Shown: piece after piece, positions 902 to 18,051 of the stretch
Layout of the letters: each line of letters starts with the position of its first letter
How positions within the stretch are numbered: position 1 is the first letter of the stretch
IMG/VR virus record: IMGVR_UViG_3300028794_000200
Location: 1 to 20,201 of that record
DNA: 20,201 bases
Direction: 5' to 3' (one strand)
Source of the DNA: a virus
Made by a program: the position numbers and the translations under genes
The notes under the pieces: model-generated
What the model saw: only the letters and a program-made list of their open reading frames with translations
Databases searched by the model: none
What the model was told of the DNA's origin: nothing

Positions 902-976
902 CCCGCCGTAGTTCAATGGATAGAACGGGCGCCTCCTAAGCGCCAGATACAGGTTCGATTCCTGTCGGAGGGACCA
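902..976 (+). tRNA. tRNA-Arg (anticodon CCU), integration target
   Basis: Full cloverleaf of 75 nt including an encoded CCA (974-976). Acceptor strands are 902-908 and 966-972, the D stem is GTTC/GAAC (911-914, 923-926), the anticodon stem is GGCGC/GCGCC (928-932, 940-944) around loop CTCCTAA with anticodon CCT at 935-937, and the T stem is ACAGG/CCTGT around TTCGATT. The fourth acceptor pair is a G905-A969 mismatch. The 3' part from 954 on is duplicated at 18029-18051, which identifies it as the attachment core. The gene remains complete after integration because the element carries the same 3' end. Confidence 0.93.
954..976 (+). other. attL core (direct repeat, left end of element)
   Basis: 23 bp covering the T loop, T stem 3' strand, acceptor 3' strand, discriminator and CCA of tRNA-Arg (TTCGATTCCTGT...GGGACCA). 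The identical sequence occurs at 18029-18051. Tyrosine integrases of the P4 class typically recombine within such tRNA 3' ends. Confidence 0.92.
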
Positions 977-1010
977 GAAAGTTGTTCAAGGACAGCCGCC
1001 AAGGCTCAGA

Positions 1011-1045
1011 AGCCCGCTCCCGTACGAGGGAAGCGGGCTTTTTTT
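1011..1045 (+). terminator. Rho-independent terminator after tRNA-Arg
   Basis: Inverted repeat AGCCCGCT...AGCGGGCT with an inner CCC/GGG extension, followed by a run of seven T (1039-1045). It lies 35 bases after the tRNA, just inside the element, and probably ends the tRNA transcript before the integrase promoter region. Confidence 0.85.
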
Positions 1046-1086
1046 CGTTCCGGGATGTTCGCTGACGTTCGCGGGCAGCCGGTCGT

Positions 1087-1140
1087 GTCTGGGGGCAACT
1101 TTGGGGGCATCAGAATCCGCAACTGAAGGAGTTGCCCCCA
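1087..1140 (+). promoter_or_regulatory. Integrase arm-type repeats, left copy
   Basis: A 23-bp block at 1087-1109 (starting GTCTGGGGGCAACTTTGG) contains two tandem copies of TGGGGGCA. It is repeated exactly at 17972-17994, near the other end. A third, inverted copy (TTGCCCCCA) lies at 1132-1140, immediately before the integrase start. Position inside both att cores and identity suggest integrase arm-binding sites; because they overlap the integrase leader they may also autoregulate it. Confidence 0.65.
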
Positions 1141-1141
1141 A

Positions 1142-2365
1142 ATGCCTCTGACCGACACCGCCATCAAGGCCGCGAAACCCGGCTCGAAACCGCTCCGACT
1201 GTTCGACTCCGGCGGCCTGTATCTCGAACTGGCCCCGAGCGGCGGGCGCTGGTGGCGCCTGAAGTACAGGCACGGCGGGAAGGAGAAGCGGCTCTCGCTG
1301 GGCACCTATCCAGACACCACGCTGAAGGCCGCGCGCGAGCGCCGGGATGAGGCGCGCAAGCTGCTGGCCAGCGGCATGGACCCAGGCGCCGAGCGCAAGG
1401 CCGACAAGTTGCTGGCGCAGCTGGAGGCCGAGCGGGGTTTCAAGCCGGTGGCGCTGGCCTGGCTGAAGCACAACTCCGCCCGCTGGGCGCCTGACACCAA
1501 GGCGAGGGTCCTGGCCAGCCTGGAGGCGGACGCATTCCCCACCCTGGGCGCCATGCCGATCGCGGACATCAAGGCGCGCCACATCGCCGCGGCCGTGCGC
1601 GCGATCGAGCAGCGCGGGGTCGGCGAGACAGCCGTTCGCGTCCTGCAGCGCATCCGGTCCGTGTTTCGGTTCGCCGTGGTGAAGGAGTGGATCGACACGA
1701 ACCCGACACTCGACGTGAAGGCAGACGAGCTGCTGAAGCCACGCCAGGTGAAGCACCGTGCGGCGCTGCCCGAAGCCGAGCTGCCAGCACTCCTGGCCAA
1801 GCTCGATGCGTACGAGGGTGATGTGGCAACCGGGACCGCTCTGCGCCTGCTGCTGCTGACAGTTGTTCGGCCCGGTGAGCTGCGAGGGGCTCGCTGGGAA
1901 GAGATCGACCTCGACGCTGCCCGATGGCGCATTCCGGCTCAACGCATGAAGATGAAGGCCGAGCACCTGGTGCCGCTCTCTCGCCAGGCCGTGGCCCTGT
2001 TCCGCAGCATCGAGGCACATCAGGACCCCGGTGGCTTGGTCTTCCCGAGCCCGTACTACCCCGGCAAGTCGCTCAGTGAGAACACGTTCAACAGTGCGCT
2101 CGCACGCATGGGATACAAGGGCATCGCCACCGCGCATGGCTTCCGGGCGCTCTTCTCGACGGTCGCGAACGAGTGCGGGCACAACCCCGATGTGATCGAG
2201 CGGCAGCTGGCGCATGTCGAGCGCAACGACGTGCGCGCGGCCTACCATCGCGCCGCCTATGTGGCCGAGCGCACTGCCCTGGCGCAGTGGTGGGCCGACT
2301 TCCTCGATGCCAAGCGCACGGGTGTCGTGGTGCCGATCGGCAAGCGCAAGAGTCGCGGCACCTGA
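1142..2365 (+). CDS. int: Tyrosine recombinase/integrase, P4 type
   Basis: 407-aa site-specific recombinase that would integrate and, with an excisionase, excise the element at tRNA-Arg. Residues 1-85 form the DUF4102 N-terminal arm-binding domain (LTDTAIKAAKPG, then DSGGLYLEL and KRLSLGTYPD). The central core-binding domain spans about 95-190 and the catalytic domain 210-390. Visible catalytic residues are R243 (VVRPGELRG), H332 and R335 (HGFR), H358 (LAHVERN) and probable nucleophile Y368 (AAYHRAAY; Y373 is a second candidate). Length is normal for the family. AAGGAG lies ten bases upstream of the ATG. The gene sits directly inside attL and reads inward. Probable autoregulation comes from the TGGGGGCA repeats just upstream. 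The excisionase role may be filled by the AlpA-like protein at 9881. Confidence 0.96.
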   Translation: MPLTDTAIKAAKPGSKPLRLFDSGGLYLELAPSGGRWWRLKYRHGGKEKRLSLGTYPDTTLKAARERRDEARKLLASGMDPGAERKADKLLAQLEAERGFKPVALAWLKHNSARWAPDTKARVLASLEADAFPTLGAMPIADIKARHIAAAVRAIEQRGVGETAVRVLQRIRSVFRFAVVKEWIDTNPTLDVKADELLKPRQVKHRAALPEAELPALLAKLDAYEGDVATGTALRLLLLTVVRPGELRGARWEEIDLDAARWRIPAQRMKMKAEHLVPLSRQAVALFRSIEAHQDPGGLVFPSPYYPGKSLSENTFNSALARMGYKGIATAHGFRALFSTVANECGHNPDVIERQLAHVERNDVRAAYHRAAYVAERTALAQWWADFLDAKRTGVVVPIGKRKSRGT

Positions 2366-2609
2366 ACGGCTTTCGATCCGAGGGCACCCAAGCGTCCCCT
2401 GCAGCGCCCGGCCTTCTGCCGGGCGGCGTCCATCTGGCTATCGGCTTCGTGTGCGCAGGTGAGGTGCCAGCGCTTCGCCTCGTCGACCGGCCCTGATTCC
2501 TCTCGATGCAATGGTCGCCCGGGCCGTGGGGGGATGTGGGCGCATCCATCTTCGCGCGACGAGCTTGAGCGCCCGCCAAGGAAAAGCGCCGGCGCGTGCA
2601 CACATCGAC

Positions 2610-2748
2610 CGTAGACGCGTAGACAGGACCCTTGGCAAAGATGGTCGACCGGCCGGAAACCCGCATGGATGCTGGGTTTCACGGAATCTCGACGGCCGAA
2701 GAAGGACCGTAGACAGCACCGTAGACAGACCGTAGACAGCGTAGACAG
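2610..2748 (+). repeat. Iteron-like cluster A (CGTAGACAG)
   Basis: Direct copies of CGTAGACAG at 2618-2626, 2708-2716, 2720-2728, 2731-2739 and 2740-2748, plus one variant CGTAGACGC at 2610-2618. The last four are packed at 9- to 12-bp steps. The same motif forms a second cluster at 17759-17871. After excision and circle formation the two clusters would lie about 1.8 kb apart across attP. Repeats of this size near a primase-helicase element are expected for replicase binding (P4 alpha protein uses short iterons at ori and crr). Confidence 0.75.
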
Positions 2749-2756
2749 CGAAGGGC

Positions 2757-2815
2757 AGGAAGAGAAGAGAGAGAGGAGTGGAGTGCTCTCCTCTCCTCTT
2801 CTCTTCTCTTCTCTT
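2757..2815. repeat. Polypurine/polypyrimidine imperfect inverted tract
   Basis: A purine run (2757-2778, AGGAAGAGAAGAGAGAGAGG...) is followed after a few bases by a pure CT run (2785-2815). The two arms can pair imperfectly around GAGTGCTC. It lies nine bases after the last iteron of cluster A. It could be an easily melted or unusual-structure element of an origin, or a long RNA hairpin; neither can be told from sequence alone. Confidence 0.55.
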
Positions 2816-3010: not shown

Positions 3011-3032
3011 GGGTGATCGATAGGAGCAGGGC

Positions 3033-3533
3033 ATGCGGATAGTCGGGCAGGAGGAAGTCGCCAAGCTGTTCGGCGTCACGGCCAAGACCATCGGCGAATG
3101 GCAGCACGCGGGGTTCCCCGTGCTGGAGCGCGGCGGCGACAACAAGCCGTCGGTGTACGACTCCGCGGCCTGCATTTGGTGGGACGTGCAGCGCAAAGTG
3201 CAGAAGGCCTCTGCACCCGAGACGCCGCAGGATCGCCTCTGGCGCCTGCAGGCCGACGGGCTGGAGCACCAGCTCGCCAAGGAACGTGCGCGCCTCATCC
3301 CAGCGGGCCAGCTCAACCCGCTCCTAGACGCTGCAAGCGCGGCAACGCGGTGCGCTCTGGATCGCGAGTGTTTGCACATCCTGGAGCTTGTCGAGAGCGC
3401 ACCGCCTGGGCGGCTGGAACGGGAGCAAGTTCTCCGTGCTGCCTTCGACAGCTTCCTGCGTCGGCTCTCGCGCTGGCGGCCCGGCGGGCCGGAAGTTGAG
3501 CCGCCGCCACCTGGTGACGGATTGAAGGGCTGA
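3033..3533 (+). CDS. Phage terminase small subunit, Nu1-like DNA-packaging protein
   Basis: 166-aa protein that would recognise the packaging site and recruit a large terminase. Residues 1-55 form the Nu1-type winged helix-turn-helix: VAKLFGVTAKTIGEWQHAGFPVLERGG followed by the family's YDSAACIWW segment. The middle (about 60-95) is charged and helical, as expected for dimerisation. The C-terminus is proline-rich. AGGAG lies six bases before the ATG. The partner large terminase is missing from the element, so the protein must either redirect a helper phage's motor to this DNA, as small terminases of PICI satellites do, or be a relic. Upstream dyads at 2954-3010 are candidate recognition sites. 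It is followed by the three-half-site operator at 3548. Confidence 0.9.
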   Translation: MRIVGQEEVAKLFGVTAKTIGEWQHAGFPVLERGGDNKPSVYDSAACIWWDVQRKVQKASAPETPQDRLWRLQADGLEHQLAKERARLIPAGQLNPLLDAASAATRCALDRECLHILELVESAPPGRLEREQVLRAAFDSFLRRLSRWRPGGPEVEPPPPGDGLKG

Positions 3534-3547
3534 GGGCAACCCAAGAA

Positions 3548-3618: not shown

Positions 3619-3632
3619 TCTGACCGCTGCCC

Positions 3633-4487
3633 ATGAAACTCCCGAAACTCGCCACCCTCTTCGCGCGCCTCTTCAAGTCCGACCCCGAGCCCGTCGTGGT
3701 CGACGCCATGCGGCGTATCGAGGAAGTCGCCGCCGCCGACTCAAGTGCGGCCGAAACCGAGATCGCCACCGCCGAAAGCGCAGCTGCCAGTGCGCGCGCG
3801 ACTGAGCAGGCGGCCAACGATCAAGTCGAGCGCCTCACAGCGCGCGCCACCGAACTGCGCACCAAACTCGCAGACTTGAACGCGCAGTTGGCCACTGGCC
3901 TGAATCGCAGCGCGGCCGACTATGCCCAAGCCGTTGCCTCGGGTGACGACGCGGCGCAGAAGCGAGCCGAAAAGTCGGCTCCGAACGCCATGGCCACGCG
4001 CGAGGAAGCGGCGCGCATCGGCGCGTTGGTCGCTGGCCTCGAAGAGCAGGCAGCATCTTGCCGGGCGACAGCAGCCACGGCCCGCGCGACTTTGGAGAAG
4101 GCGACTCACCGCCTCGGCATCGCCACCTGCGAGCGCACGCATATCGCATGGGACCTGGCGCTGAACGACCTTGCACTGGCCTCTGGTCGACTCTTCGACG
4201 CCTACGAGCGAGCCGTGCGCCTCGTTCCGGTCGAGGTGCAGTTGCTCAAGGCGGCCTATTTCTCCAACCAGCGTTCCCTGGTCGCCCAACTGGACGGCTC
4301 CTATGCCAAGCCAGGGCGATCCGTCGCGCCGCTGACCCAGGACGCAGCGCGCCGTTGCATGCGCCTCCTGGCGGCGCCGGCGGCGGAGGTCGACTTGCCG
4401 CAGGTGCTCGCCACAGCCGCAGAACCTGTCGCGCCTGTAGAGGCGCAACAGACGCTTGACAAAACCATCCAGACAACGGAGTCGTGA
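3633..4487 (+). CDS. Alanine-rich coiled-coil protein, possible scaffold
   Basis: 284-aa protein with no recognised domain. Residues about 25-170 are almost continuous heptad-like, Ala/Glu/Arg-rich helix (IEEVAAADSSAAETEIATAE, ATELRTKLADLNAQLA). A more hydrophobic segment follows (AWDLALNDLALASGRLFDAYERAVRLVPVEVQLLKAAYF, about 172-210), and the C-terminal tail is Ala/Pro-rich. Position two genes before the major capsid protein, helical character and size are those of a capsid scaffolding protein, and no other scaffold or protease is present, so a scaffold or size-determining role is a reasonable inference but no more. It is the first gene after operator A. The ATG at 3633 has no strong Shine-Dalgarno sequence. 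Confidence 0.75.
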   Translation: MKLPKLATLFARLFKSDPEPVVVDAMRRIEEVAAADSSAAETEIATAESAAASARATEQAANDQVERLTARATELRTKLADLNAQLATGLNRSAADYAQAVASGDDAAQKRAEKSAPNAMATREEAARIGALVAGLEEQAASCRATAATARATLEKATHRLGIATCERTHIAWDLALNDLALASGRLFDAYERAVRLVPVEVQLLKAAYFSNQRSLVAQLDGSYAKPGRSVAPLTQDAARRCMRLLAAPAAEVDLPQVLATAAEPVAPVEAQQTLDKTIQTTES

Positions 4488-4488: not shown

Positions 4489-4746
4489 ATGAACCGAGAC
4501 ACCGCCATCGATCGCGAGTCGATCGTTCATGCCGCCGAATCAACCTGGGCGAGCAATCCGGCCATCCGGCAGGAGTTCGTCGACAACAAGGCGTCCTTCA
4601 TCGCGTACCAGGTGGCATTCGCCGAGGGTCGCTTGCGGGTCCTCGGCAAAGGTGACCAGGACGCCGGCACCGCATCGTCGGCGCCCCCGGCCGGCGGCTT
4701 CCATAGCAAGGCCCACGCTGCAGGCCTGTTCCCCAACGGTCTTTGA
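4489..4746 (+). CDS. Small hypothetical protein between coiled-coil and capsid genes
   Basis: 85-aa protein (MNRDTAIDRESIVHAAES...). GGAG lies seven bases before the ATG at 4489, and the gene begins two bases after the stop of the coiled-coil gene, so the two are one transcription unit. A helical N-terminal half (about 10-50, with AIRQEFVDNKASFIAYQVAF) is followed by a flexible Gly/Ala/Pro-rich tail (GDQDAGTASSAPPAGGFHSK). Small proteins here in phage head modules are often decoration, scaffold-accessory or head-stabilising proteins, but nothing in this sequence fixes a role. Confidence 0.75.
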   Translation: MNRDTAIDRESIVHAAESTWASNPAIRQEFVDNKASFIAYQVAFAEGRLRVLGKGDQDAGTASSAPPAGGFHSKAHAAGLFPNGL

Positions 4747-4779: not shown

Positions 4780-5748
4780 ATGAGCGACCAAAGCCAACTT
4801 TCCAGCCGTTCTGTCATGGGCGTCTACTTCGCTCGCGTCGAGGCGGCCCCCGAGCGTGCCTGGGTGAGTCAACTTGCCGAGCTGTATGTGGGCTCGCAAA
4901 CCATGTCCGGCGTCTGGGAGCAATACCCGTTCATCGGGCATGCGCCTCCAATGCGGCCCTTCGGCGCGGGCCGCCAGGTCAAAGGGCTGCACCAGCTGGG
5001 CAGCGTCACCATCGAGAGCAAGCCCTACGAAGCCACGCTGGAAGTGAACGTCCGGGATTGGCGCAATGACAAGACCGGCCAGATGCGCTTGCGCGTGGAA
5101 GAGTTCGCCGATCAGAGCGTGCAGCACTGGATTTCGCTCATCTACGCGCTGACCGCGATCGGCGAAACCGCCACAGCGTACGACGGCCAGACCTTCTTCT
5201 CGACGACGCACAGCGAGTTCGACTCGGGCGTGCAGTCCAACAGCATCAGCGTCGACATCAGCGAAGAGCCGACGCTGATTCACGGCATCCCGACGCAGCC
5301 CTCGCTCGAAGAATTCCAGCGCTGCATTGCACGTGGAGTCACGCAGTTCTTCACCCTGAAAGACGACCAGGGCGAACCCATCAACGGGAATGCACGTCGC
5401 TTTGTGCTGATGGTGCCGGTCAAGTTCCTGCTTCTGGCCCAGGCTGCCGTGGCGGCGTTCGGCACGCAAGCCGCACAGCAGAACGTCAACCCTGTCGCGG
5501 CGCTCGACATCGAGCTCGAAGTGGTCGCGAACCCACGGCTCACGTGGACGGACCGCTTCGCTCTCTACCGGGTCGACGGCTCGACGAAACCCATCATTCG
5601 CCAGACCGAGCGCGATTTTCAGGTGCGCGCCCTGGCCGAAGGCTCCGAGTTCGAGTTCAACAACGATGCCTGGCAGTTCGGTATCGACGCCATCCGCAAC
5701 GTCGCGTTCGGCCACTGGCAGCGCGCCGTTCTCGTGCGCATGGTCTGA
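4780..5748 (+). CDS. Major capsid protein, Mu gpT-like (HK97 fold)
   Basis: 322-aa putative capsomer protein. It resembles the Mu-like major head subunit gpT (about 305 aa): residues 134-146 YDGQTFFSTTHSE match the gpT pattern YDGQNFFDKEHP, and the C-terminal part (about 262-318) with FALYRVDGSTKPIIRQTER, FEFNNDAWQFGIDAIRNVAFGHWQRAV matches the gpT end (ALYLLD...KPFIFQ...YGFWQMAV). Length is complete. AAGG lies ten bases before the ATG. No prohead protease or portal gene accompanies it, unlike complete Mu-like head modules. In a satellite, its own capsid protein would allow a head suited to the ~17-kb genome. The assignment rests on motif recognition; a search against gpT profiles would settle it. 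Confidence 0.85.
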   Translation: MSDQSQLSSRSVMGVYFARVEAAPERAWVSQLAELYVGSQTMSGVWEQYPFIGHAPPMRPFGAGRQVKGLHQLGSVTIESKPYEATLEVNVRDWRNDKTGQMRLRVEEFADQSVQHWISLIYALTAIGETATAYDGQTFFSTTHSEFDSGVQSNSISVDISEEPTLIHGIPTQPSLEEFQRCIARGVTQFFTLKDDQGEPINGNARRFVLMVPVKFLLLAQAAVAAFGTQAAQQNVNPVAALDIELEVVANPRLTWTDRFALYRVDGSTKPIIRQTERDFQVRALAEGSEFEFNNDAWQFGIDAIRNVAFGHWQRAVLVRMV

Positions 5749-5973: not shown

Positions 5974-6303
5974 ATGTTCTGCATCACGCCTTCCCCCACC
6001 TTCACCATCGACGTCAACCTATCGTCGCCGGGCAGCGACAAGTCGACGCCGGTGAGCGTTACCTTCAGGCACAAGGGAGCCGCCGAGCTCAAGCTGTGGC
6101 AGCAGCAGGCGCAGGAGCGCAAGACCGAAGCTGAGTTTCTCGGCGAGGTCATCGCAGGCTGGTCGGGCTTTGTGGACCAGGAGGGCGCTCCCGTCGACTA
6201 CACGCCCGCGGCGCTCGAAGCCCTGCTCGATGCCTTTCCGAGCGCGGGGAGCGAGTTCTTCCTGGCGTACCACGGCCGACTCACCAGGCCGCGCGCGGCC
6301 TGA
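5974..6303 (+). CDS. Phage tail assembly chaperone
   Basis: 109-aa protein that would hold the tape measure protein and recruit tail tube subunits during tail assembly. It shows the pattern of siphophage tail assembly chaperones (Phage_TAC type): N-terminal PSPTFTIDVNL, then VSVTFRHKGAAELKLW, a charged helix, GEVIAGWSGFVDQEG and ALEALLDAFPSAGSEFFLAYHGRL. The gene lies immediately before the tape measure gene, the usual place. ATG 5974 was chosen because AGGAG precedes it by nine bases and family members start MF.I.P; a GTG at 5929 would add 15 residues. An open -1 frame with coding-like composition continues to 6356, reminiscent of the lambda G/GT arrangement. No tail tube gene is present in the element, so it would have to act on a helper's tube protein. 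Confidence 0.85.
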   Translation: MFCITPSPTFTIDVNLSSPGSDKSTPVSVTFRHKGAAELKLWQQQAQERKTEAEFLGEVIAGWSGFVDQEGAPVDYTPAALEALLDAFPSAGSEFFLAYHGRLTRPRAA

Positions 6304-6369: not shown

Positions 6370-8478
6370 ATGAGCACCAGAGAAGAAGCCGTCGTCGTCA
6401 TCAAGCTCGACGGCAGCACCGTGCCGGCCAGCGCCGACAGCATTGCCAAGTCGCTTGGCAAGGTCGGCCAGGCCGGCGAGATCAGCGCACGCCAGACCGC
6501 CGCAGCGATGCGCACGCTGCCTGCGCAATTCACCGACATAGCCACCCAGCTGGCCGGCGGCCAGAACCCGCTGCTCATCCTGCTGCAGCAGGGCGGCCAG
6601 ATCAAAGACAGCTTCGGTGGCGTCGGTAACGCCGTCAAGGCGCTGGGTACTTTCATCACGCCGGCCAACCTTCTGCTCGGCGGCCTGGCAGCGACTTTGG
6701 GCACCGTGGCGCTGGCAGCCTACAAGGGCGTGACGCAAACCGACGAGCTGCGCGACATGCTGGCTTTGACGGGCAACGCGGCCGGCGTCACCGCCAGCGG
6801 CGTCGAAGACATCGCGCAACGCATCAGCACCGCGTCAGGGCAGACGGTCGGCGGTGCAAGAGAAATCGCCCTGGCCCTTGCGGCCACCGGGCGCACCAGT
6901 TCGGCCGTGCTGGGCAGCCAGGCACTGGCCATCGCCCGCATCGCTGACCTGTCTGGCGAGAGCGCCAGGAAGATCGCCGGCACCTTCGCATCGCAGCTCG
7001 ACGAACCGGCAAAGTTCGCTGCGAAGCTCAATGAGCAATACAACTTTCTGAACCTGGCGCAGTTCAAGCGCATCCAGCAGTTGGACCAGGAGGGCCGCGC
7101 GGCCGAGGCTGCCAAGCTCACTAACGAGCTGTTGACCAAGGCGCTAGAGGGCCAGCGCGATCAGCTCGGCACCATCGAGAAGTTGCTGGAGGGCACAGCG
7201 AAGCTCTGGGGCCGCTTCTGGCAGGCCGCCCTGAACGAAGGCAAGCCAAGCACCCTGAAGCAGCAGCTCGACACGGTGCGCGGGGAGATCGAGTCGCTGC
7301 AGGGCCGCCTCAACGGCACCGACCCGAACGCTCTGGTGCGCACACCGGATGGCATACGCAACGCGGCCGAGCAGTTGCGCAGCCAGATCATCGCGCGCCA
7401 GCAAATAGCCCGCGAGCTGCAGCGTTCCGTCAGCACTGAACAGCTGAACGCGGACGCCCGCAGCGAGGCCGCGGCGAAGACGCGCGCGGGCATCAAGGAT
7501 GCGTTGGCGTCGTCAGCGGCCACGCGAAAGCTTGACCCAGCCGTCAATTTCGACATCTTGGACTCCAGGGACGCTCGCGCGCGCCTGCTGGAGGCGCAGC
7601 AAGTGGAAGAAGGTCTCGTCGATTCCTTCTTCACCAGCAAGCTGCAACTGCAGGATGAACGCGACGCCCAGCTGCGTGCGAGAGACGCCGAGTTCCTTGC
7701 ATCCCTCCGAGACCAAAACGCCCGCGCCGGCATCGAGCTGATCGCCGACGAGAGGCAGCGGGGCGAAGCCCTCATCGCACTGGATCGCTCCATCGCAGAA
7801 CGACGCCTCGCGGCGCAGGTGAGCCCCGGCGCGCGCGACGAAGCTCTGCGCCTGCTCGGCGAGAAGAGCGGACTCAGCCGCGACAAATTGGACACCGACA
7901 TACGCGCAGCCAGCGACAAGGCCGCTGCAGAAGCCGGCAAGGCCACGTACAACGACGTGCGCAACGCTCTCAGCGCCGCGTTCCGAGACTCGCACAACCC
8001 CGCCAAAGCCTTTGCCAACGCACTGGGCGACGCCGTGTACACACGGCTCACATCCAGCATCGCCGATGCAATCGCCACCGGCGCGGTGGGCAAAGACGGC
8101 AAGGGCGGCATCTTCTGGGACCTGCTGGGCATGTTCTTCCCGGCGATCAAGGGTGGCGGCGTCGACGCCAGCTTCACCGGCGGCTCACCATATCCCGGCT
8201 TCGACCGCCCAGGTGAAGGCCTGGCCACGGGCACGAACTACGTGCAACGCGACATGATCGTCAAGGTGCACAGGGGTGAGGCTGTGGTGCCGGCAAAGTA
8301 CAACCCCGCAGCTGGCGGGGCCGGCGGCACCTCCCGCCTCATCGTGGCCTACTCGCCCACCTTCCAGGTGGACGCACGCGCAGACCAGGCACAAACGGTC
8401 GAAGCGCTGTACCAGATGACCGTTCGCACCCAGCAGGAGTTCGTCGAGCACCTGCGTGCTCGTGGCTTCGCGGTATGA
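6370..8478 (+). CDS. Tail length tape measure protein
   Basis: 702-aa protein that sets tail length and later passes through the tube at DNA entry. Residues about 38-120 are the prophage tape measure N-terminal domain (MRTLPAQFTDIATQLAGGQ, PLLILLQQGGQIKDSFGG, then a hydrophobic segment ANLLLGGLAATLGTVALAA). A long helical, Ala/Arg/Glu-rich middle (about 200-530) follows. The lambda-type C-terminal domain (about 530-660) ends in GLATGTNYVQRDMIVKV and the conserved VHRGEAVVP. Both ends are intact. By the rule of about 0.15 nm per residue it specifies a tail near 105 nm; many family members are longer. AAGGA lies ten bases before the ATG. The stop overlaps the next start (ATGA). Tail tube, terminator and tip genes are absent, so it must work with a helper's tail or be a remnant. 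Confidence 0.94.
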   Translation: MSTREEAVVVIKLDGSTVPASADSIAKSLGKVGQAGEISARQTAAAMRTLPAQFTDIATQLAGGQNPLLILLQQGGQIKDSFGGVGNAVKALGTFITPANLLLGGLAATLGTVALAAYKGVTQTDELRDMLALTGNAAGVTASGVEDIAQRISTASGQTVGGAREIALALAATGRTSSAVLGSQALAIARIADLSGESARKIAGTFASQLDEPAKFAAKLNEQYNFLNLAQFKRIQQLDQEGRAAEAAKLTNELLTKALEGQRDQLGTIEKLLEGTAKLWGRFWQAALNEGKPSTLKQQLDTVRGEIESLQGRLNGTDPNALVRTPDGIRNAAEQLRSQIIARQQIARELQRSVSTEQLNADARSEAAAKTRAGIKDALASSAATRKLDPAVNFDILDSRDARARLLEAQQVEEGLVDSFFTSKLQLQDERDAQLRARDAEFLASLRDQNARAGIELIADERQRGEALIALDRSIAERRLAAQVSPGARDEALRLLGEKSGLSRDKLDTDIRAASDKAAAEAGKATYNDVRNALSAAFRDSHNPAKAFANALGDAVYTRLTSSIADAIATGAVGKDGKGGIFWDLLGMFFPAIKGGGVDASFTGGSPYPGFDRPGEGLATGTNYVQRDMIVKVHRGEAVVPAKYNPAAGGAGGTSRLIVAYSPTFQVDARADQAQTVEALYQMTVRTQQEFVEHLRARGFAV

Positions 8479-8738
8479 ACGTCGTCGATCCCGATCAGCC
8501 GAGGACGCAGGGCGACTGGGTCGAGATCGCCCGGCGCGCGTCGGTCCAAGACCTGGCGCGCCACGAGCTGGCGCTGGCATCCATGTACCAGGTGCTTGTC
8601 GACCTGGCCGCGCAGGGCGTCACCGAGGCCAATGCAGCGGCATTGATGGCAGGTGTGCAGCAAGCCTACGAAACCGTGGTCGCCGAGACTGCGTCAAGAG
8701 GCCGTGCGCCTCTCTTCGGGCTGGCAACCTTGCAGTGA
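8475..8738 (+). CDS. Hypothetical protein coupled to the tape measure gene
   Basis: 87-aa protein (MNVVDPDQPRTQGDWVEIAR...) whose ATG overlaps the tape measure stop codon, implying translational coupling. It is predominantly helical (about 13-72) with no membrane segment or recognised motif. In complete siphophages this place is taken by a minor tail or tail-tip gene, but this protein is too small and unlike those I know. Function unknown. Confidence 0.75.
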   Translation: MNVVDPDQPRTQGDWVEIARRASVQDLARHELALASMYQVLVDLAAQGVTEANAAALMAGVQQAYETVVAETASRGRAPLFGLATLQ

Positions 8739-9880: not shown

Positions 9881-10141
9881 ATGGAGGCCGCCAAGGTGCA
9901 GCTCGTCAGCGAAACAAGGCCGCAGGTGCGGCAAGACCGGTTGTTGCGCCGGGCCGAAGTCTCCAGGCTCACCGGCCTGGGCCGTACCTCGATCTACACG
10001 CTTGAACGCAAGGGCGAGTTTCCGGCCCGGGTGAGGATCACCGAGCGCAGCGTGGCATGGGCCGAGAGCGCGGTCCTGCAGTGGGTGCAGGACCGCATCG
10101 CACCGGCCAAGCCGGCCGGCGACGAAGGGCACACGTCGTGA
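9881..10141 (+). CDS. AlpA-family regulator / excisionase-like protein
   Basis: 86-aa MerR-like winged helix protein of the AlpA family: RLLRRAEVSRLTGLGRTSIYTLERKGEFPARVRITERSVAWAESAVLQWVQDRI at about residues 20-73 matches the family from recognition helix to wing. In P4- and PICI-like elements such proteins activate element genes or act as excisionases. The ATG at 9881 has no good ribosome binding site; a GTG at 9896 has GGAGG eight bases upstream and may be the true start, giving an 81-aa protein. It is preceded by operator B and its stop overlaps the next gene's GTG start. A plausible ligand for operators A and B is this protein itself, which would make it the switch joining regulation and morphogenesis; this is inference. 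Confidence 0.88.
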   Translation: MEAAKVQLVSETRPQVRQDRLLRRAEVSRLTGLGRTSIYTLERKGEFPARVRITERSVAWAESAVLQWVQDRIAPAKPAGDEGHTS

Positions 10142-10452
10142 ACCGCGCCGGCGACATGCGGGCGCGCCGCCGGGCCCGCGCCGAGGCCGACAAGGCACGG
10201 CGCGCGCTGCTGCACGAGATCGCTTGCCTGCGCCGCATCGGTCTCTTCTACAAAGACCAGGTGCTGCTGTACCCACACACCCTTGCGCTGCTGGCCGCGG
10301 CCGAGCAAGCGTATGTGTGCCACCGCCGCCGGCGGTTCGAACACGACGGCCACCGCTACCGCATCGCCACCAGCAACATCGGCCGGCTGATCGTGTGGGA
10401 CGAAGCCACGGGGCAGGACCTGGTGTCGACGTTTCCGGCGGGCGGCGTATGA
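10138..10452 (+). CDS. Small basic hypothetical protein coupled to AlpA
   Basis: 104-aa protein starting at a GTG that overlaps the AlpA stop; AAGGG lies eight bases upstream of that GTG, supporting it. The N-terminus is very Arg-rich (MRARRRARAEADKARRALL), followed by a short helical part and a compact C-terminal segment with HRRRRFEHDGHRYRIATSNIGRLIVWDE that looks like a small beta structure. Basic charge suggests nucleic acid binding. No family recognised. It ends 38 bases before the convergent gene at 10491. Confidence 0.7.
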   Translation: MNRAGDMRARRRARAEADKARRALLHEIACLRRIGLFYKDQVLLYPHTLALLAAAEQAYVCHRRRRFEHDGHRYRIATSNIGRLIVWDEATGQDLVSTFPAGGV

Positions 10453-11325: not shown

Positions 11326-11721
11326 GGCCGCCTAAAGAGCGGCCTTTTTTGCGCGTCAACGCCTTGGATTCCTGTTTCTACGGGGGCCAGGGCGGGGGAG
11401 CCGCAAGGCTCGCCGGTTCCTGTGTTCCGGTCTTCCAACCCCGCTTTGGTCCCCACCCTCGTTTGGAAGCGAGGGCGGCGGGCTTGCACCGCAACACAGG
11501 AGCCAACGCAATGGCTGGTCAGACCCTGGGCGCACCGTCGCCCGTTGATTCAACACCCCTTTCCGCGCCACGGCGCACCTTGCAGCTCGTGCCGGGCTCG
11601 ACTCGCACGCGTCGCAGTCATGGCGTCTTCACGCTGGCGGGGCAGCTCGCCTGCGTGTACAGCACCAGGCGCGCCGGCGCCTGCTACGGCGTCAGCTTCG
11701 AGCTGGGCGCCGGCACGCTGA
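11299..11721 (+). CDS. Ash/Icd-like leader ORF, doubtful
   Basis: Open frame starting at TTG. Its residues about 29-55 (GARAGEPQGSPVPVFRSSNPALVPTLVWKRG) resemble the Ash/Icd-like proteins that lie behind C4 RNA in P1/P4-type elements. The intrinsic terminator at 11326-11350 and the C4 target lie inside it, as expected for a regulated leader ORF. Against it: no ribosome binding site, a weak start codon, and from 11511 on a different frame has the composition and context of the real gene. It may be translated only in part or be a conserved leader without a functional product. Confidence 0.3.
   Translation: MEARKTQARGRLKSGLFCASTPWIPVSTGARAGEPQGSPVPVFRSSNPALVPTLVWKRGRRACTATQEPTQWLVRPWAHRRPLIQHPFPRHGAPCSSCRARLARVAVMASSRWRGSSPACTAPGAPAPATASASSWAPAR
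11326..11350 (+). terminator. Intrinsic terminator directly after the C4 RNA
   Basis: Stem GGCCGC (11326-11331) and GCGGCC (11339-11344) with loop CTAAAGA, followed by six T (11345-11350). Its location between the C4 RNA and the rest of the operon means that default transcripts would stop here, leaving only C4 RNA. Reading into the replication operon would require readthrough or antitermination. Confidence 0.85.
11415..11504 (+). promoter_or_regulatory. C4 target and ribosome-site-hiding helix
   Basis: GGTTCCTGTGTT (11415-11426) can pair with AACACAGGAGCC (11493-11504), eleven Watson-Crick pairs and one G-U, which buries the AGGAG of the gene at 11511. The left arm overlaps the C4 target (11419-11443), so C4 binding and ribosome-site hiding compete for the same bases. 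This forms a switch between alternative RNA structures. Confidence 0.62.
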
Positions 11722-11834
11722 CGCTGGCCAGCTCGATGACCCCCGGCCAGGCGCGCGCCATGGCCCGGGCACTCAGCGCAGCGGCCGACGCGGCCGAGGC
11801 CGTGCAGGCCCAGCAGTGCGGAGGTGCGCTATGA
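11511..11834 (+). CDS. Hypothetical protein, first gene of the replication operon
   Basis: 107-aa protein. AGGAG (11498-11502) lies eight bases before the ATG at 11511. The first ~30 residues are Pro/Thr/Arg-rich; the rest (GVFTLAGQLACVYSTRRAGACYGVSFELGAGTLTLASSMTPGQARAMARALSAAADAAEAVQ) looks like a small beta sheet followed by a helix. The stop overlaps the next start (ATGA). It stands where C4-controlled elements carry their antirepressor or derepression gene, so a regulatory role is possible, but no family is recognised. Confidence 0.7.
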   Translation: MAGQTLGAPSPVDSTPLSAPRRTLQLVPGSTRTRRSHGVFTLAGQLACVYSTRRAGACYGVSFELGAGTLTLASSMTPGQARAMARALSAAADAAEAVQAQQCGGAL

Positions 11835-12661
11835 ACGCCCCGACGATGACGGCCGCCGCCACCACGACAACCATCGTGGTCAGGCTCACCGCTTCCATCT
11901 GCCAGCACTACCGGGCTCGCGGCGTGTACGCTGACCTCATGTCCGCCCGCGACGACAGCGGGCACGTGAGCATTGACGGCAACGGCGCGGCCGGCTTGTT
12001 GGCCGATGCCGAGGGGCAGCTCCTGCGTCGCGATATCCCGCGCGGCCAGCCGAGGGCGCTGAGGTCACTTGTCGAGCAGCTGCGTGCCGCCCTTGGCATT
12101 GCTCCGTTGGGTGACGAGCAGGCATCGAAGCGGGAGCGCATGCTTGAGGATCGTGCGCTGTCGATGATCGGCCGGCCGTTGCGGCGGCCCGATCGCTGGG
12201 ATGCTGACCAGCTCAGGAAAGCGCGGGAACTGGTCGAGGCTGAGCGGTTGAAGCTCGCGGGCATGCCGAGCACCGATGCTGAGTTCTGCCGCCACGTTGC
12301 CGCGTTGTTCTGGTCGGCCTGGAGCACGGTGTACTACCAGTGCATGGCCGACAACACGCACGAGAGCGGCTTCAAGTTCTCGTCTGACGCTTCACGGGTG
12401 CTGAACGACATGGCGAAGGGCTTGTACCTTCGCATTCGCAACGCCCACCAGCACGAGATCGTCGACGCTGGCGATGATGACGACGAAGCCGATGGTCTCG
12501 TCCACAACGGCGCCAAAGGCCAGGTGATCCTCGATCCGTCGGTGCGCATCGGGGCGCTGGCGAACGCCATGGCCACTGCCGCCAGGGCAGACGCCATGCT
12601 CCAAGACCTCGTCGAGCGCGCCGCGGGTGCTGCTGCTGCGGCAGCGAGGAAGACAGCATGA
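11831..12661 (+). CDS. Hypothetical protein, replication operon
   Basis: 276-aa protein. GGAGG lies six bases before the ATG at 11831. A Thr/Ala-rich start leads into a helical, charged body (ERMLEDRALSMIGRPLRRPDRWDADQLRKARELVEAERLKLAG), then EFCRHVAALFWSAWSTVYYQCMADNTHESGFKFSSDASRVLNDMAKGLYLRIRNAHQHEIVD. An acidic stretch (DAGDDDDEADG) follows, and the tail is Ala-rich. No catalytic motif recognised. Coupled to both neighbours by ATGA overlaps. Third codon positions in the middle are slightly less GC-biased than in neighbouring genes. Probably an accessory to replication or early control. Confidence 0.75.
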   Translation: MNAPTMTAAATTTTIVVRLTASICQHYRARGVYADLMSARDDSGHVSIDGNGAAGLLADAEGQLLRRDIPRGQPRALRSLVEQLRAALGIAPLGDEQASKRERMLEDRALSMIGRPLRRPDRWDADQLRKARELVEAERLKLAGMPSTDAEFCRHVAALFWSAWSTVYYQCMADNTHESGFKFSSDASRVLNDMAKGLYLRIRNAHQHEIVDAGDDDDEADGLVHNGAKGQVILDPSVRIGALANAMATAARADAMLQDLVERAAGAAAAAARKTA

Positions 12662-13089
12662 GCGCCCGCACGATCAAGAGCACGGGCCAGAAAGCCGGCC
12701 CCGACCCGTGGCAGCTGCTGCGCGCGCTCGATGGCTGGATGGCAGCAGCGCACTACGGCGCTGACCATCCCTGGCGCGTGTCGATCGCGCAGGCGGTCTC
12801 GAAGGCGCCGGCTGCGGCCGTCACCGCGAGCGATGCGCATGCAGAGGCCGCACAAGACGTGTTTGCGCAGATCGCCATGCAAGCCGACACGATCATCGAC
12901 CTGCTGCAAAACCACGACGACGCGCTGACCACGCGCGACCTGGCAGCGGTGGCCCTCGCCCGCAACATCGGTTGCGTTGCTGACATCGCCTACACCGCGA
13001 TGGGCGGCGCCGGCATCAAGGGCACCGAGGCCTGGCTGCTGGCCCCGGCCACGAAGGCCTCTCTTCTGGCCATGGGAGGTGCAGCATGA
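12658..13089 (+). CDS. Hypothetical protein, replication operon
   Basis: 143-aa, almost entirely helical protein (DPWQLLRALDGWMAAAHYGADHPWRVSIAQAVSKAPAAAV; DVFAQIAMQADTIIDLLQNHDDALTTRDLAAVALARNIG). GAGGAAG precedes the ATG, which overlaps the previous stop. No motif identified. The repeated short-helix architecture resembles small phage accessory proteins, but no role can be given. Confidence 0.72.
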   Translation: MSARTIKSTGQKAGPDPWQLLRALDGWMAAAHYGADHPWRVSIAQAVSKAPAAAVTASDAHAEAAQDVFAQIAMQADTIIDLLQNHDDALTTRDLAAVALARNIGCVADIAYTAMGGAGIKGTEAWLLAPATKASLLAMGGAA

Positions 13090-13529
13090 ACGCGCGTGCA
13101 CCGAACCCGAACGTGCCGCCGCTATCGCCGGAGATGGATGCCTTCGTTGACGACGCGCTCCATTCCGCCCTAGCGCACGCGGCGCCGCCCGGACCGTTCG
13201 ATCTGGCGACTCTCACGCGGCTGCTGATGGCGCGCGCACTGCCCGCGCTGTCGGAAAGCGAACTTCAGTGGATCGCTGGTCAGTCGGGCGAACTGGCCCG
13301 CCGCATGGCGAACGAATCGGCCACCGTGATGGAGGCCGTGGGTTGCCTGCTCGCCGGGGACAACGCCAAGCACGGAATGGGCAACTTCCGAGGCCAGAAC
13401 GATGCCCCGGCGCTCGCCTTGCACGCGGCGGCGATGTTCACCGAGCTGGAGGCGCTGATCAACGTCGACATCGACGCTTGCTTTGCCCTGCGCGAGCGAC
13501 GCAAGACTCGCGGTGGGGACCCACGATGA
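13086..13529 (+). CDS. Hypothetical protein, replication operon
   Basis: 147-aa helical protein with GGGAGG seven bases before an ATG that overlaps the preceding stop. Features: acidic N-terminal segment (SPEMDAFVDDALHSALAHAAPPG), WIAGQSGELARRMANESATVMEAVGCLLAGDN, and a C-terminal helix ending in basic residues (ALRERRKTRGGDPR). The tail's end overlaps the next start. No family recognised. Confidence 0.72.
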   Translation: MNARAPNPNVPPLSPEMDAFVDDALHSALAHAAPPGPFDLATLTRLLMARALPALSESELQWIAGQSGELARRMANESATVMEAVGCLLAGDNAKHGMGNFRGQNDAPALALHAAAMFTELEALINVDIDACFALRERRKTRGGDPR

Positions 13530-13873
13530 CGCGCGGCGACCCGGGTGCCTGGACCACCGAGGAAGCGGCAGTGCTGCGCACCGCGCCGGCCGCGGTGGCC
13601 GCGCAGCTGGCGGTGCTGGGCAGTGACCTGCCCGGCTTCGACAACGGCGACAGAGCGCACCTGCGCCGCGTGGCGCACGCCCTGGGCGGAATGCAGCGCA
13701 ACCGCGACGAAGCGCTGCGCCTGGCGCGTGAAGCGATGGCCGCACGCGCAAGCATCGCGGCGCAGTGCTCACGGCCCGAGGCTGTGCTGCTGCAGGCCGT
13801 GCTGTACCTGCTGGCGCACGACGAGCGCCTGCGCCAGGCAGCCGAAGAGCAAGCGGGTTCGCAGGCCGCATGA
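13526..13873 (+). CDS. Hypothetical protein upstream of primase-helicase
   Basis: 115-aa Ala/Arg-rich helical protein (MTRGDPGAWTTEEAAVLRTAPAAVAAQLAVLGSDLPG...). Both start and stop overlap neighbouring genes by ATGA, so it is almost certainly made together with the replicase. The pair of helices with LRRVAHALGGMQRNRDEALRLAREAMAARASIAAQ suggests a coiled coil. Could be a replication accessory factor; no direct evidence. Confidence 0.7.
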   Translation: MTRGDPGAWTTEEAAVLRTAPAAVAAQLAVLGSDLPGFDNGDRAHLRRVAHALGGMQRNRDEALRLAREAMAARASIAAQCSRPEAVLLQAVLYLLAHDERLRQAAEEQAGSQAA

Positions 13874-16815: not shown

Positions 16816-16845
16816 GCGCGCGGCCCCGTCTACACAGCAAGTCGC

Positions 16846-17292
16846 CTATGGGTACAGGATTACCAGCGAGCCAGTGGGGCCGTTCCAGTCGAGCTGGACC
16901 AAGTCGAGGATGTCGCGGCCGAGCAGGCCGTGGTGCCCATGCTCTCTGAGCGCCGTGGCCATGATCTTGAAGGGATCGAAGCGCCAAAGGTTCTGATCGG
17001 CGAGGGTGCCTAACGCCAGCGAGACAGGGTACACATCGCACTCGGCTGCCACCCCTTGGGTGGACGAGGAATGGTACTGACACGAATCAATTGGCGAGAT
17101 GCCGAGCGATGCAAGCCGGGACGCATCCACGAACGTGTGCGAAGCGCCGGTGTCTACCAGCAGGGTCAGCACGATACTCGGCGGTAGTGCCTGGCCTGCG
17201 CGCACCAACGCGTGCCGGTTCGGCTTGGCAACGCCGATTTCGACGTCGACCAGGGCACCGATGGGACCTATCCGACTGGTCAGTCGGCGCAC
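16846..17292 (-). CDS. Retropepsin-like aspartyl protease
   Basis: 148-aa single-domain aspartyl protease. Catalytic motif LLVDTGASHTFVD at residues 45-57 (D47, T48, G49), and the second family motif HGLLGRDILD (about 120-129) that forms the psi-loop support. Prokaryotic retropepsins act as dimers, each chain giving one aspartate. Start at GTG 17292, thirteen bases inside the end of the upstream DUF5678-like gene, so translation is coupled. The pair faces the replication operon and lies in the right-end cargo position of the element. No signal peptide or membrane segment, hence a cytoplasmic enzyme. Substrate unknown; an abortive-infection or regulatory protease role is speculation. Confidence 0.87.
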   Translation of the reverse strand: MRRLTSRIGPIGALVDVEIGVAKPNRHALVRAGQALPPSIVLTLLVDTGASHTFVDASRLASLGISPIDSCQYHSSSTQGVAAECDVYPVSLALGTLADQNLWRFDPFKIMATALREHGHHGLLGRDILDLVQLDWNGPTGSLVILYP

Positions 17293-17522
17293 GAACCAAC
17301 GTGCCGCGACAAGTAGGCAACCGGCTCGACCGCGTTGACTTGCTTGACCATGAACCGTTGGAGTCCGAACGTCTCGTATGCCCAGTCCAGGGCTTCTTCA
17401 TACGTGGGCAGGATCTTGCAGATGTCGTCGCCACGGATGACCACGTACTGGCCTTCTCCCGCTTTGAGCATGTCTGTCAAGGCCGACTCATAGGTCTGCC
17501 TTTCCTTGTCCAAATTCAGCAT
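17280..17522 (-). CDS. DUF5678-like small protein paired with the protease
   Basis: 80-aa protein resembling the DUF5678 domain: GQYVVIRGDDICKILPTYEEALDWAYETFGLQRFMVKQV at about residues 24-62 has the pattern 'G-x-YV-x-I-x-GD...-TYEEAL-x-x-x-Y-x-x-F-G-x-x-x-F-x-VKQ'. AAGGAGA lies seven bases before the ATG, the strongest ribosome site in this part. Its end overlaps the protease start. I recall DUF5678 proteins next to retropepsin-like proteases in other bacteria, which suggests a partner, inhibitor or adaptor. Together they form the only cargo operon on the right side. Confidence 0.8.
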   Translation of the reverse strand: MLNLDKERQTYESALTDMLKAGEGQYVVIRGDDICKILPTYEEALDWAYETFGLQRFMVKQVNAVEPVAYLSRHVGSCAD

Positions 17523-17758
17523 GTCGTGTCTCCTTCGCCTGCTGTGGACCGAGCGCTTTGATGACGCCCCTTCGTGTGCATACGCTCAAGTCGAATTGTG
17601 CGCTGCAGCGGCGACGGTGCGTCCATCGCTCTGGGGGGTTACGTTAGTGGGCAAAACGGGAGCGACCATTGGTGTTCATCCCGAGGTTCAGAACGGGCGA
17701 GCTGAGCCACTACTGAATCAGCGGCAGGAGTCGTGCCCGCCACGTGTGGGGGCGCCGA

Positions 17759-17871
17759 CCGTCTACGCCCACAAATGACACCGTAGACAGGTTTTTCGCC
17801 CGCCGTAGACAGCAAAAGTGTTCTGCGACAACAACTTAGGCCGCCTGTCTAAGCTGTCTACGCTGTCTACG
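17759..17871. repeat. Iteron-like cluster B, candidate origin
   Basis: CGTAGACAG in direct orientation at 17782-17790 and 17804-17812; inverted copies CTGTCTACG at 17854-17862 and 17863-17871, with a degenerate one CTGTCTAAG at 17845-17853; one inverted variant at 17759-17767. Direct and inverted copies face each other across an AT-richer spacer (17813-17844, AAAAGTGTTCTGCGACAACA...). This symmetry is typical of a replication origin, whereas cluster A has only direct copies. A lone related site (CCGTCTACA) occurs at 16826-16834. Confidence 0.75.
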
Positions 17872-17971
17872 GTGTTTTTGAGGGGGGGTCAGTCCCACAC
17901 CCCCCGCGATGACCCAAAACCGACAGAGTTGGCGGCTGGCGGCGCCTGCGGCAAACTGAGACAGCGCGTCG

Positions 17972-17994
17972 GTCTGGGGGCAACTTTGGGGGCA
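17972..17994 (+). promoter_or_regulatory. Integrase arm-type repeat, right copy
   Basis: Exact 23-bp copy of the sequence at 1087-1109, containing two tandem TGGGGGCA units, 35 bases inside attR. Same orientation as the left copy. Together they probably form the arm sites of attP. Confidence 0.65.
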
Positions 17995-18028
17995 ACTCAT
18001 GACAGATTGATGCCTTTTACCTGGGGAC

Positions 18029-18051
18029 TTCGATTCCTGTCGGAGGGACCA
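18029..18051 (+). other. attR core (direct repeat, right end of element)
   Basis: Exact 23-bp copy of 954-976 (TTCGATTCCTGT...GGGACCA). It is not preceded by other tRNA sequence, so it is the displaced chromosomal tRNA 3' end and fixes the right boundary. Confidence 0.92.

What the first reader, a model, noticed from the sequence alone, without database searches (positions are those of the whole stretch)
954..18051. Satellite-like element carrying its own capsid and tail-length genes but no packaging motor, portal or tail tube
Seen: a tRNA-bounded 17.1-kb element with int, AlpA, C4-type RNA and primase-helicase (the P4/PICI toolkit) plus small terminase, major capsid protein, tail chaperone and tape measure protein. 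All other head, tail and lysis genes are missing, yet operons are compact, with ATGA overlaps and no pseudogenes. Known capsid-forming satellites supply heads and borrow tails; one that also brings a tape measure and its chaperone would remodel tail length as well. Inference: a new class of helper-dependent satellite that redirects packaging (TerS), head (capsid and coiled-coil protein) and tail length. The alternative is a prophage reduced by deletions.
Basis: partly seen in the sequence, partly recalled or inferred. Interest (0 to 1): 0.85.

Follow-up and report, generated by a model that had tools for sequence, protein, structure and literature searches.

The report
Phage satellite carrying borrowed virion parts
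A 17-kb element, probably from a Burkholderiales bacterium, looks like a helper-dependent phage satellite that carries its own head-shell and tail-ruler genes but not the rest of a virus particle; some relatives carry other single virus parts, so it probably builds hybrid particles with a helper phage's remaining parts, a strategy already shown in cholera phage satellites.

Summary
Bases 954-18051 form an integrated element bounded by a perfect 23-bp repeat at a tRNA-Arg, with integrase, AlpA, C4 RNA and DUF927 primase-helicase, plus TerS, a Mu-gpT-type capsid protein, a tail assembly chaperone (TAC) and a full-length tape measure protein (TMP). No TerL, portal, protease, tube, tip or lysis gene was recognised. 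Two iteron clusters resemble a P4-type ori/crr pair.

A one-off deletion derivative is unlikely. Of 103 loci with a related DUF927 gene, 10 carry virion genes other than TerS, differing between loci: TMP alone (three), GpZ+TMP, portal, S49 protease, capsid domain, J-like tip, TAPI, GpZ. The closest TMP-bearing relative (DUF927 57% identical) has a TMP without detectable similarity in the same place, between int and C4.

New here is this cargo in an AlpA-C4-DUF927 lineage, with TerS and capsid added, and its variety among relatives. The TMP is not shortened. No helper or experiment is available.

The parts
902..976 (+). tRNA-Arg(CCT), integration site
   Evidence: ARAGORN; Rfam RF00005 64.3 bits
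954..976 (+). left attachment repeat, 23 bp, inside the tRNA 3' end
   Evidence: perfect repeat with 18029-18051
1142..2365 (+). tyrosine integrase, 407 aa (43% to phiAH14b integrase)
2619..2748 (+). iteron cluster 1 (five GTAGACAG), candidate origin
   Evidence: 9 sites in the window against 0.16 expected; sequence
3033..3533 (+). TerS, Nu1 family, 166 aa
   Evidence: PF07471 3.3e-10, phrog_57 3.5e-15
3633..4487 (+). coiled-coil-like protein (judged by eye), 284 aa, unknown; possible head-assembly factor (inference)
   Evidence: no significant family match; no significant similarity to satellite coiled coils
4489..4746 (+). small protein, 85 aa, unknown
   Evidence: no significant match
4780..5748 (+). 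major capsid protein, Mu gpT type, 322 aa, collinear with phage MCPs
   Evidence: PF10124 1e-23, phrog_371 2.3e-32; 44% to KT1, 39% to phi3LM21 over almost full length
5974..6303 (+). tail assembly chaperone (TAC_4), 109 aa
   Evidence: PF08748 1.9e-9; phage-contig TAC 2e-22
6370..8478 (+). tape measure protein, 702 aa, full length
   Evidence: PF06791 2.2e-60, phrog_24 7e-88; aligns nearly end to end with 696-699-aa TMPs
8475..8738 (+). 87-aa protein overlapping the TMP stop codon by 4 bp, unknown
8918..9811 (+). 297-aa protein, unknown
   Evidence: no significant match
9881..10141 (+). AlpA regulator/excisionase, 86 aa
   Evidence: PF05930 5e-17
10156..10452 (+). small protein of about 98 aa, unknown (start codon chosen by eye)
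11376..11460 (+). C4 antisense RNA (P4-type immunity RNA)
   Evidence: Rfam RF01695 77.3 bits, full model
11831..13873 (+). four 4-bp-overlapping ORFs (276, 143, 147, 115 aa), unknown; distant relatives of the 147-aa one in L194 and L127
13870..16815 (+). DUF927 primase-helicase, 981 aa
   Evidence: PF06048 2.5e-75, PF13362, PF08707; phrog_1139 8.6e-101
17783..17870 (.). iteron cluster 2 (four GTAGACAG, both orientations), candidate crr-like site
   Evidence: sequence
18029..18051 (+). right attachment repeat, 23 bp

Best explanation
The element is a helper-dependent phage satellite with a P4-like replication and immunity core (tRNA-targeted integrase, AlpA, C4 RNA, DUF927 primase-helicase, iterons). 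When a helper siphophage replicates, it excises and replicates itself, steers the helper's packaging motor to its own DNA with its TerS, and supplies its own head shell protein and its own tail ruler with its chaperone. The helper supplies portal, protease, TerL, connectors, tail tube, tail tip and lysis. The result is a chimeric particle whose head shell and tail core are satellite-made. The likely gain of a private TMP is that satellite tails escape anything aimed at the helper's TMP (tail-assembly blockers such as Tab or Rta, entry exclusion) and are favoured over helper tails; a changed tail length would be a by-product. Shown: gene content, boundaries, iterons, intact full-length reading frames, recurrence of isolated virion genes in related elements. 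Inferred: mobilisation, use of the parts in particles, the benefit.
For: Boundaries and genes. No other virion gene recognised. Iterons. MCP collinear with three phage or prophage MCPs; TMP aligned nearly end to end at 39-41% identity with the TMPs of L009, L010 and L012, so both frames were kept open over long divergence. Of 103 DUF927 loci, 10 carry virion genes other than TerS and 4 carry a TMP: L170 (DUF927 57% identical; TMP 720 aa between int and C4, phrog_8462 6.5e-14), L176 (TMP 1098 aa, ending 51 bp before DUF927, TMP_3 6e-55), L138 (GpZ-like + TMP 742 aa, PhageMin_Tail 5e-10), L130 (TMP 966 aa downstream of DUF927, phrog_8125 3e-19). Three Pfam TMP families (TMP_2 in the window, TMP_3 in L176, PhageMin_Tail in L138) point to separate acquisitions. 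The ORFs after the elements of L138, L170, L176 and L130 look like ordinary chromosome, not a prophage (read by eye). Named relative phiAH14b (integrase 43%, DUF927 37-39%) was found packaged in its helper's capsids and carries a TAPI gene (PMC4936722, passages and section 26). Mechanism precedent: PLE-encoded TMP replaces the helper's TMP in PLE virions and deleting tmp cuts PLE11 transduction by roughly 99.9% (PMC12987554, section 8); SaPIbov5 Ccm is a capsid-protein homologue that changes head shape (PMC8569155, abstract and passages).
Against: No helper is known for the window, whose record holds 20 kb only, and nothing was induced. None of the 103 loci has the same gene set. Loci with virion genes are a minority (10 of 103). 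Exact ends are not mapped for the relatives: for L138, L170, L176 and L184 exact matching to the tRNA/tmRNA ends gave nothing longer than 12-13 bp, and in L087, L130 and L157 the virion genes lie downstream of DUF927, so their place inside the element is not proven. Family support for two TMPs (L130, L170) and for the J-like protein (L197) is from PHROGs only; Pfam gave no TMP or tail-tip family for them. A capsid-gene knock-out in a PICI was tolerated (cited in PMC10111431, section 22), so a carried late gene need not be used.
Confidence: 0.68

Rival explanations
1. Captured late genes in transit: a genuine satellite swallowed a late-gene cluster of a helper prophage (Mu-like head, lambda-like tail) and is losing it piecemeal; MCP, TAC and TMP happen to remain and need not be used.
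For: PMC10111431 (sections 20-22 read) describes capture of late-gene clusters by gram-negative PICIs and proposes cycles of large capture followed by loss. The window order TerS-MCP-TAC-TMP is the order in phi3LM21. Gaps of up to 225 bp remain between the structural genes.
Against: All four recognised virion genes are intact, with no recognised fragments between them. Full-length TMPs as the only virion gene found recur in three other loci (L130, L170, L176), which random loss would not favour, although the local screen finds TMP more readily than TerL, portal or tube.
Confidence: 0.2
2. Deletion derivative of a full prophage.
For: Its MCP relatives lie in complete siphophages or prophages: phi3LM21 and the G133 prophage.
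Against: phi3LM21 is annotated with CI and Cro-like genes and gave no match to the window's AlpA or DUF927, whereas related DUF927 genes recur in 46 of 399 and 42 of 399 genomes, and in 70 of 103 loci a similar integrase lies within 12 kb before DUF927. Two iteron clusters at opposite ends and both attachment repeats are intact.
Confidence: 0.08
3. Decoy or poison: the element's tail proteins are made to spoil tail assembly of competing phages, as a defence, and are not built into its own particles.
For: Tail-assembly blockers are carried by P4-like satellites (Tai, PMC11364771, passages) and by prophages (Tab, which targets the TMP; PMC10884400, section 7). Particles of the phiAH14a/b pair, whose satellite carries a TAPI copy, are tailless (PMC4936722, section 26).
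Against: Tab and Rta are dedicated proteins, not TMPs. A satellite that blocks its own helper's tails would strand itself unless its own parts replace them. The presence of the chaperone with the TMP favours productive assembly (inference).
Confidence: 0.12

Closest known systems
phiAH14b of Pseudomonas sp. ANT_H14 (KU708005; PMC4936722)
   Same: Integrase 43% and DUF927 primase-helicase 37-39% identical, AlpA, similar size (16.8 kb); a single annotated tail gene (TAPI).
   Different: No capsid, TAC or TMP gene annotated; its DNA was found in tailless capsids of AH14a of one size.
PLE satellites of Vibrio cholerae (PMC12987554)
   Same: Encode TMP and TAC; the PLE11 TMP enters chimeric tails, shown by western blot, mass spectrometry and deletion.
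   Different: Helper is the contractile-tailed phage ICP1; PLE11 virions use ICP1 capsid proteins. The window has its own MCP and TerS, AlpA, C4 and DUF927, and siphophage-type tail genes.
E. [quoted passage not shown]
   Same: Capsid protein and TMP without terminase, protease, adaptors or most tail genes; mostly next to tRNAs.
   Different: Lack alpA and terminase genes; carry decoration and baseplate genes; a RepA_N replicon instead of DUF927.
Capsid-forming PICIs
   Same: Own capsid protein; a sampling carries putative tmp genes (PMC12987554, Extended Data Fig. 10 legend).
   Different: Defined by MCP, protease, portal, connectors, TerS, TerL and HNH (PMC10690885, introduction passage); of these the window has only MCP and TerS. 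The original cf-PICI paper was not read.
Gram-negative PICIs with a Late zone (PMC10111431)
   Same: AlpA, C4-type RNA in some, captured phage late genes, capsid genes commonest.
   Different: Late zone lies downstream of the replication genes; [quoted passage not shown] Here the virion genes lie between int and AlpA.
Sinorhizobium phage phi3LM21 and Pseudomonas phage KT1
   Same: Closest phage relatives of the MCP (39% and 44%); phi3LM21 has the same relative order TerS, MCP, TAC, TMP.
   Different: About 41-kb phages; phi3LM21 is annotated with TerL, portal, protease, tube and fibres; KT1 has no annotation.

Membership tests
P4-like satellites | tRNA-targeted tyrosine integrase plus AlpA | tested here: met
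P4-like satellites | C4/CI-type immunity RNA | tested here: met
   77.3 bits
P4-like satellites | large primase-helicase with iterons at two sites (ori and crr; the P4 arrangement is recalled) | tested here: met
   the protein is a DUF927 type; similarity to P4 alpha itself was not tested
P4-like satellites | Sid, Psu and Delta homologues (recalled) | tested here: not met
   no such family in Pfam/PHROGs scans of the 16 called genes
Capsid-forming PICIs | MCP, protease, portal, connectors, TerS, TerL, HNH | tested here: not met
   only MCP and TerS found
Chimeric-tail satellites (PLE kind) | satellite-encoded TMP with TAC, tube and most tail genes absent | tested here: met
Chimeric-tail satellites (PLE kind) | satellite TMP incorporated into transducing virions | not testable with these tools
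   needs virions
PLE family proper | homology to PLE genes | not tested
   PLE sequences were not compared
E. coli RepA_N satellites | MCP and TMP without terminase genes, no alpA | tested here: not met
   window has TerS and AlpA
Temperate siphophage or defective prophage | TerL, portal, tube, tip, lysis genes or remnants | tested here: not met
   none recognised

The most novel reading that the evidence does not exclude
AlpA-C4-DUF927 satellites of Burkholderiales have cargo positions for exchangeable virion parts: each element carries just the one or few parts that re-specify what it needs from its helper, namely shell or head maturation (MCP, S49 protease), the portal gate, the tail ruler and entry channel (TMP, with or without TAC or GpZ) or the receptor-contacting tip (J). 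The window re-specifies packaging, shell and tail core together, so that it would be a satellite of siphophages building particles chimeric in both head and tail.
Probability: 0.4. Interest if true: 0.75.

Novelty: new variant of a known kind. Interest (0 to 1): 0.62.

Why it matters
Chimeric tails were reported in March 2026 as a first for one satellite family, with the benefit still open (PMC12987554). Intact TMP genes of three Pfam families in an apparently unrelated satellite lineage suggest that replacing the tail ruler is a convergent satellite strategy, not a PLE oddity. The lone-TMP satellites make the question directly testable: an element of about 13 kb from int to DUF927 (L176) whose only virion gene found is a 1098-aa TMP either needs it for transfer or it does not.

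Tried and rejected
Exact-peptide scans for MCP relatives in IMG/VR and in GTDB contigs gave no confirmed hit; a DUF927 scan of IMG/VR gave none. tblastn with the MCP matched 32 phage records (9 over at least 80% of the query, all below 60% identity) and 11 plasmid records (none over 80%). In 399 genomes of the order the MCP was found once at E<=1e-15, in a full prophage (G133). So the exact gene set could not be shown to recur.

Shared coiled-coil head factor: window, L086, L169 and L184 have coiled-coil-like proteins, but only L184 and L169 are similar (1e-8); dropped as evidence.

Tail shortening: no support for the window, whose TMP equals its relatives in length.

Helper in the same genome: the L176, L138 and L170 TMPs were each sought in G713, G219, G768 and G060. 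In their own genomes L176 and L170 matched only themselves; L138 also matched another G219 element at 22% (L222). Across genomes, weak matches were the G060 siphoprophage TMP (32% to L138; L221), L227 in G219 (30% to L170) and the L130 TMP (26% to L170). The L130 TMP was compared only with proteins already held. No helper was identified.

L009 (IMG/VR) looked like a capsid+TMP satellite (int, AlpA-like, helicase, TerS, TerL, MCP domain, TMP, J), but the held stretch ends inside J and in L012 a portal-like ORF follows J, so it is not counted.

TerL 0 of 103 against TMP 4 of 103 is not used as a test, because the screen found TerL in only 2 of 4 controls and TMP in 4 of 4.


Full report
What is there. 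The window is a whole IMG/VR record of 20,201 bases. Bases 954-18051 are bounded by a perfect 23-bp direct repeat, the left copy being the 3' end of a tRNA-Arg(CCT). In order on the plus strand: integrase, TerS (Nu1 family), a 284-aa coiled-coil-like protein, an 85-aa protein, a Mu gpT-type major capsid protein, a tail assembly chaperone, a 702-aa tape measure protein, an 87-aa and a 297-aa protein, AlpA, a small protein, a C4 antisense RNA, four overlapping ORFs and a DUF927/Toprim/PriCT_2 primase-helicase. Nothing resembling TerL, portal, head protease, connectors, tube, tip, fibres or lysis genes was found in the library scans of the 16 called genes or in a homology screen of all ORFs of 50 aa or more (its reference set held no lysis genes). 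The motif GTAGACAG occurs nine times (0.16 expected), five at 2619-2748 and four at 17783-17870: an iteron pattern at two distant sites, like P4's ori and crr (the P4 comparison is recalled).

Integrity. The capsid protein aligns over its whole length, without a large gap, with those of phages KT1 and phi3LM21 and of a prophage in G133. The TMP aligns nearly end to end (about 700 residues, 39-41% identity) with the 696-699-aa TMPs of L009, L010 and L012, with the 690-aa TMP of L006 over residues 2-661 (46%), and in two pieces with the 608-aa TMP of L014. At such divergence open frames of this length imply selection on the protein (inference). The element is less compact than stated: 76% coding by the 16 genes, with 667- and 1378-bp gaps holding the first iteron cluster and C4.

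Is it a recurrent kind? Using a Rubrivivax MAG (L086, DUF927 54% identical) as centre, a related DUF927 gene was found in 46 of 399 genomes of its order at E<=1e-60, 42 of 399 of its family and 10 of 360 of its class at E<=1e-80 (the centre is counted each time and the draws share other genomes, such as G094). Every place listed in these three calls was fetched, up to 20 kb each, often cut by contig ends (the centre itself is L086). The final set is 103 loci: 100 from these places, plus L086, Paludibacterium L087 and phiAH14b L089. In 70 of them an integrase similar to the window's lies within 12 kb before DUF927.

TerS-like proteins alone were matched in L126 and L178. The same screen matched no TerL and no tube in the 103. 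These counts are lower bounds: nine of the ten were first noticed by eye (L089 from its annotation) and added to the reference set, not every ORF was scanned with PHROGs, and a leave-one-out control recovered TMP in 4 of 4, TerL and portal in 2 of 4 and the tube in 1 of 3 phages or elements.

Architecture of the TMP-bearing relatives. L170: tRNA, integrase, invertase-like ORF (by eye), TMP, 141-aa ORF, C4, further ORFs, DUF927, chromosome; its DUF927 is 57% identical to the window's, and its TMP sits between int and C4 as in the window but shows no similarity to the window's TMP at E<=1e-3. L176: tmRNA, integrase, int-alpA RNA, TMP ending 51 bp before DUF927, a 112-aa ORF, chromosome; about 13 kb from int to the end of DUF927. 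L138: tRNA-Leu, integrase, int-alpA RNA, GpZ-like, a 117-aa ORF, TMP, DUF927, chromosome, in a 4.2-Mb contig. L130: DUF927, two ORFs, TMP, chromosome; no similar integrase was found, only a serine-recombinase-like ORF by eye, so it is the least certain. What counts as chromosome was read by eye. For L138, L170, L176 and L184 no attachment repeat longer than 12-13 bp was found by exact matching to the tRNA or tmRNA. Pfam supports the TMPs of L176 (TMP_3) and L138 (PhageMin_Tail) but gives no TMP family for L130 and L170, which rest on PHROGs.

G219, which holds L138, has two further TMP-bearing regions without DUF927 among the ORFs seen: L222/L223 (integrase, replication initiator, DnaB-like helicase, Neck1, TMP 849 aa) and L227 (integrase, primase, TerS, TerL, protease-MCP, portal, head closure, Neck1, tail terminator, chaperone, TMP 789 aa, then what reads as ordinary chromosome). 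No tube was recognised in either, but unmatched ORFs remain (144, 232 and 99 aa in L222; 119 aa in L227) and I did not map their ends. L227 is like a capsid-forming PICI extended by chaperone and TMP.

What it most likely does. The nearest named relative, phiAH14b, was found with its helper AH14a in particles built of AH14a proteins and carries a TAPI gene 71-74% identical to the helper's two copies (PMC4936722; passages and section 26). That a satellite TMP can replace the helper's was shown for PLEs: PLE11 virions contain PLE TMP and BhuB and not ICP1's, tails are 10 nm shorter as expected from the shorter TMP, and tmp deletion cuts transduction by about 99.9%, and by 96% and 99% in PLE1 and PLE4 (PMC12987554, section 8). 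That a satellite capsid homologue can re-shape heads was shown for SaPIbov5 Ccm (PMC8569155, abstract and passages). Prophages and satellites target TMPs to stop rivals (Tab, PMC10884400 section 7; Rta, PMC12987554 passages), and a phage with a swapped TMP largely escapes Tab. I therefore read the window as a satellite that steers packaging with TerS and supplies shell and tail core, leaving portal, motor, tube, tip and lysis to a siphophage helper. Because the TMP is not shorter than its relatives and the five satellite TMPs (window, L130, L138, L170, L176) range from 702 to 1098 aa, I favour replacement of the TMP as such (evading TMP-directed blocks, out-competing the helper's TMP) over tail shortening. 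This step is inference.

What is new. In print within the library searched: late-gene capture by PICIs (PMC10111431), capsid+TMP satellites in E. coli (PMC10448857), chimeric tails in PLEs and putative tmp genes in PLE-like elements and cf-PICIs (PMC12987554). I found no report of TMP in AlpA-C4-DUF927 satellites, nor of lone portal, S49 protease or J genes in them, in nine paper searches (open-licence PMC papers only, of which I saw listings and the parts named above; subscription papers, including the original cf-PICI paper, were not read). Hence 'new variant of a known kind'.

Limits. No helper, no induction, no host genome for the window; Burkholderiales is inferred from its DUF927 relatives. 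Names such as GpZ, TAPI, J and Neck1 follow PHROGs or the records' annotation, GpZ being recalled for the minor tail/tail completion families.

Noticed in passing
window 16846-17292 (minus) and 17280-17522 (minus): Retropepsin-like aspartyl protease gene (Asp_protease_2 2.9e-8) with a small unmatched ORF upstream, opposite to the other element genes, between DUF927 and the second iteron cluster; function in the element unknown.
   Followed up: partly
window 19487-19585: ARAGORN calls a tRNA-Leu that Rfam does not report at its gathering threshold and that overlaps a PEP-CTERM-like ORF (by eye) on the other strand; probably a false call.
   Followed up: partly
L227 1-16326 (G219:C1:2486000-): Region like a capsid-forming PICI with TerS, TerL, protease-MCP, portal, head closure, Neck1, tail terminator, tail chaperone and TMP as the last phage gene, but no recognised tube or tip.
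   Followed up: partly
L222 14067-19981 and L223 578-3731 (G219:C1): Another TMP-bearing region in the same chromosome, with integrase, replication initiator, DnaB-like helicase, Neck1 and TMP 849 aa; ends not mapped.
   Followed up: partly
L197 41-642 and 12922-13933: Similar repeat arrays with a period of about 58 bp near both ends of the contig that holds the satellite with the J-like tip protein.
   Followed up: no
L009 (IMG/VR contig): int, AlpA-like, helicase, TerS, TerL, MCP domain matching only the second half of a protease-MCP profile, TMP directly after the MCP, then an ORF of unknown function and J; no recognised tube or chaperone between MCP and TMP. The held stretch ends inside J.
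   Followed up: partly
L143 8049-9152 (minus), between int and DUF927: Reverse-transcriptase-like ORF (recognised by eye, no family scan) in a satellite cargo region; possibly a retron-type defence gene.
   Followed up: no
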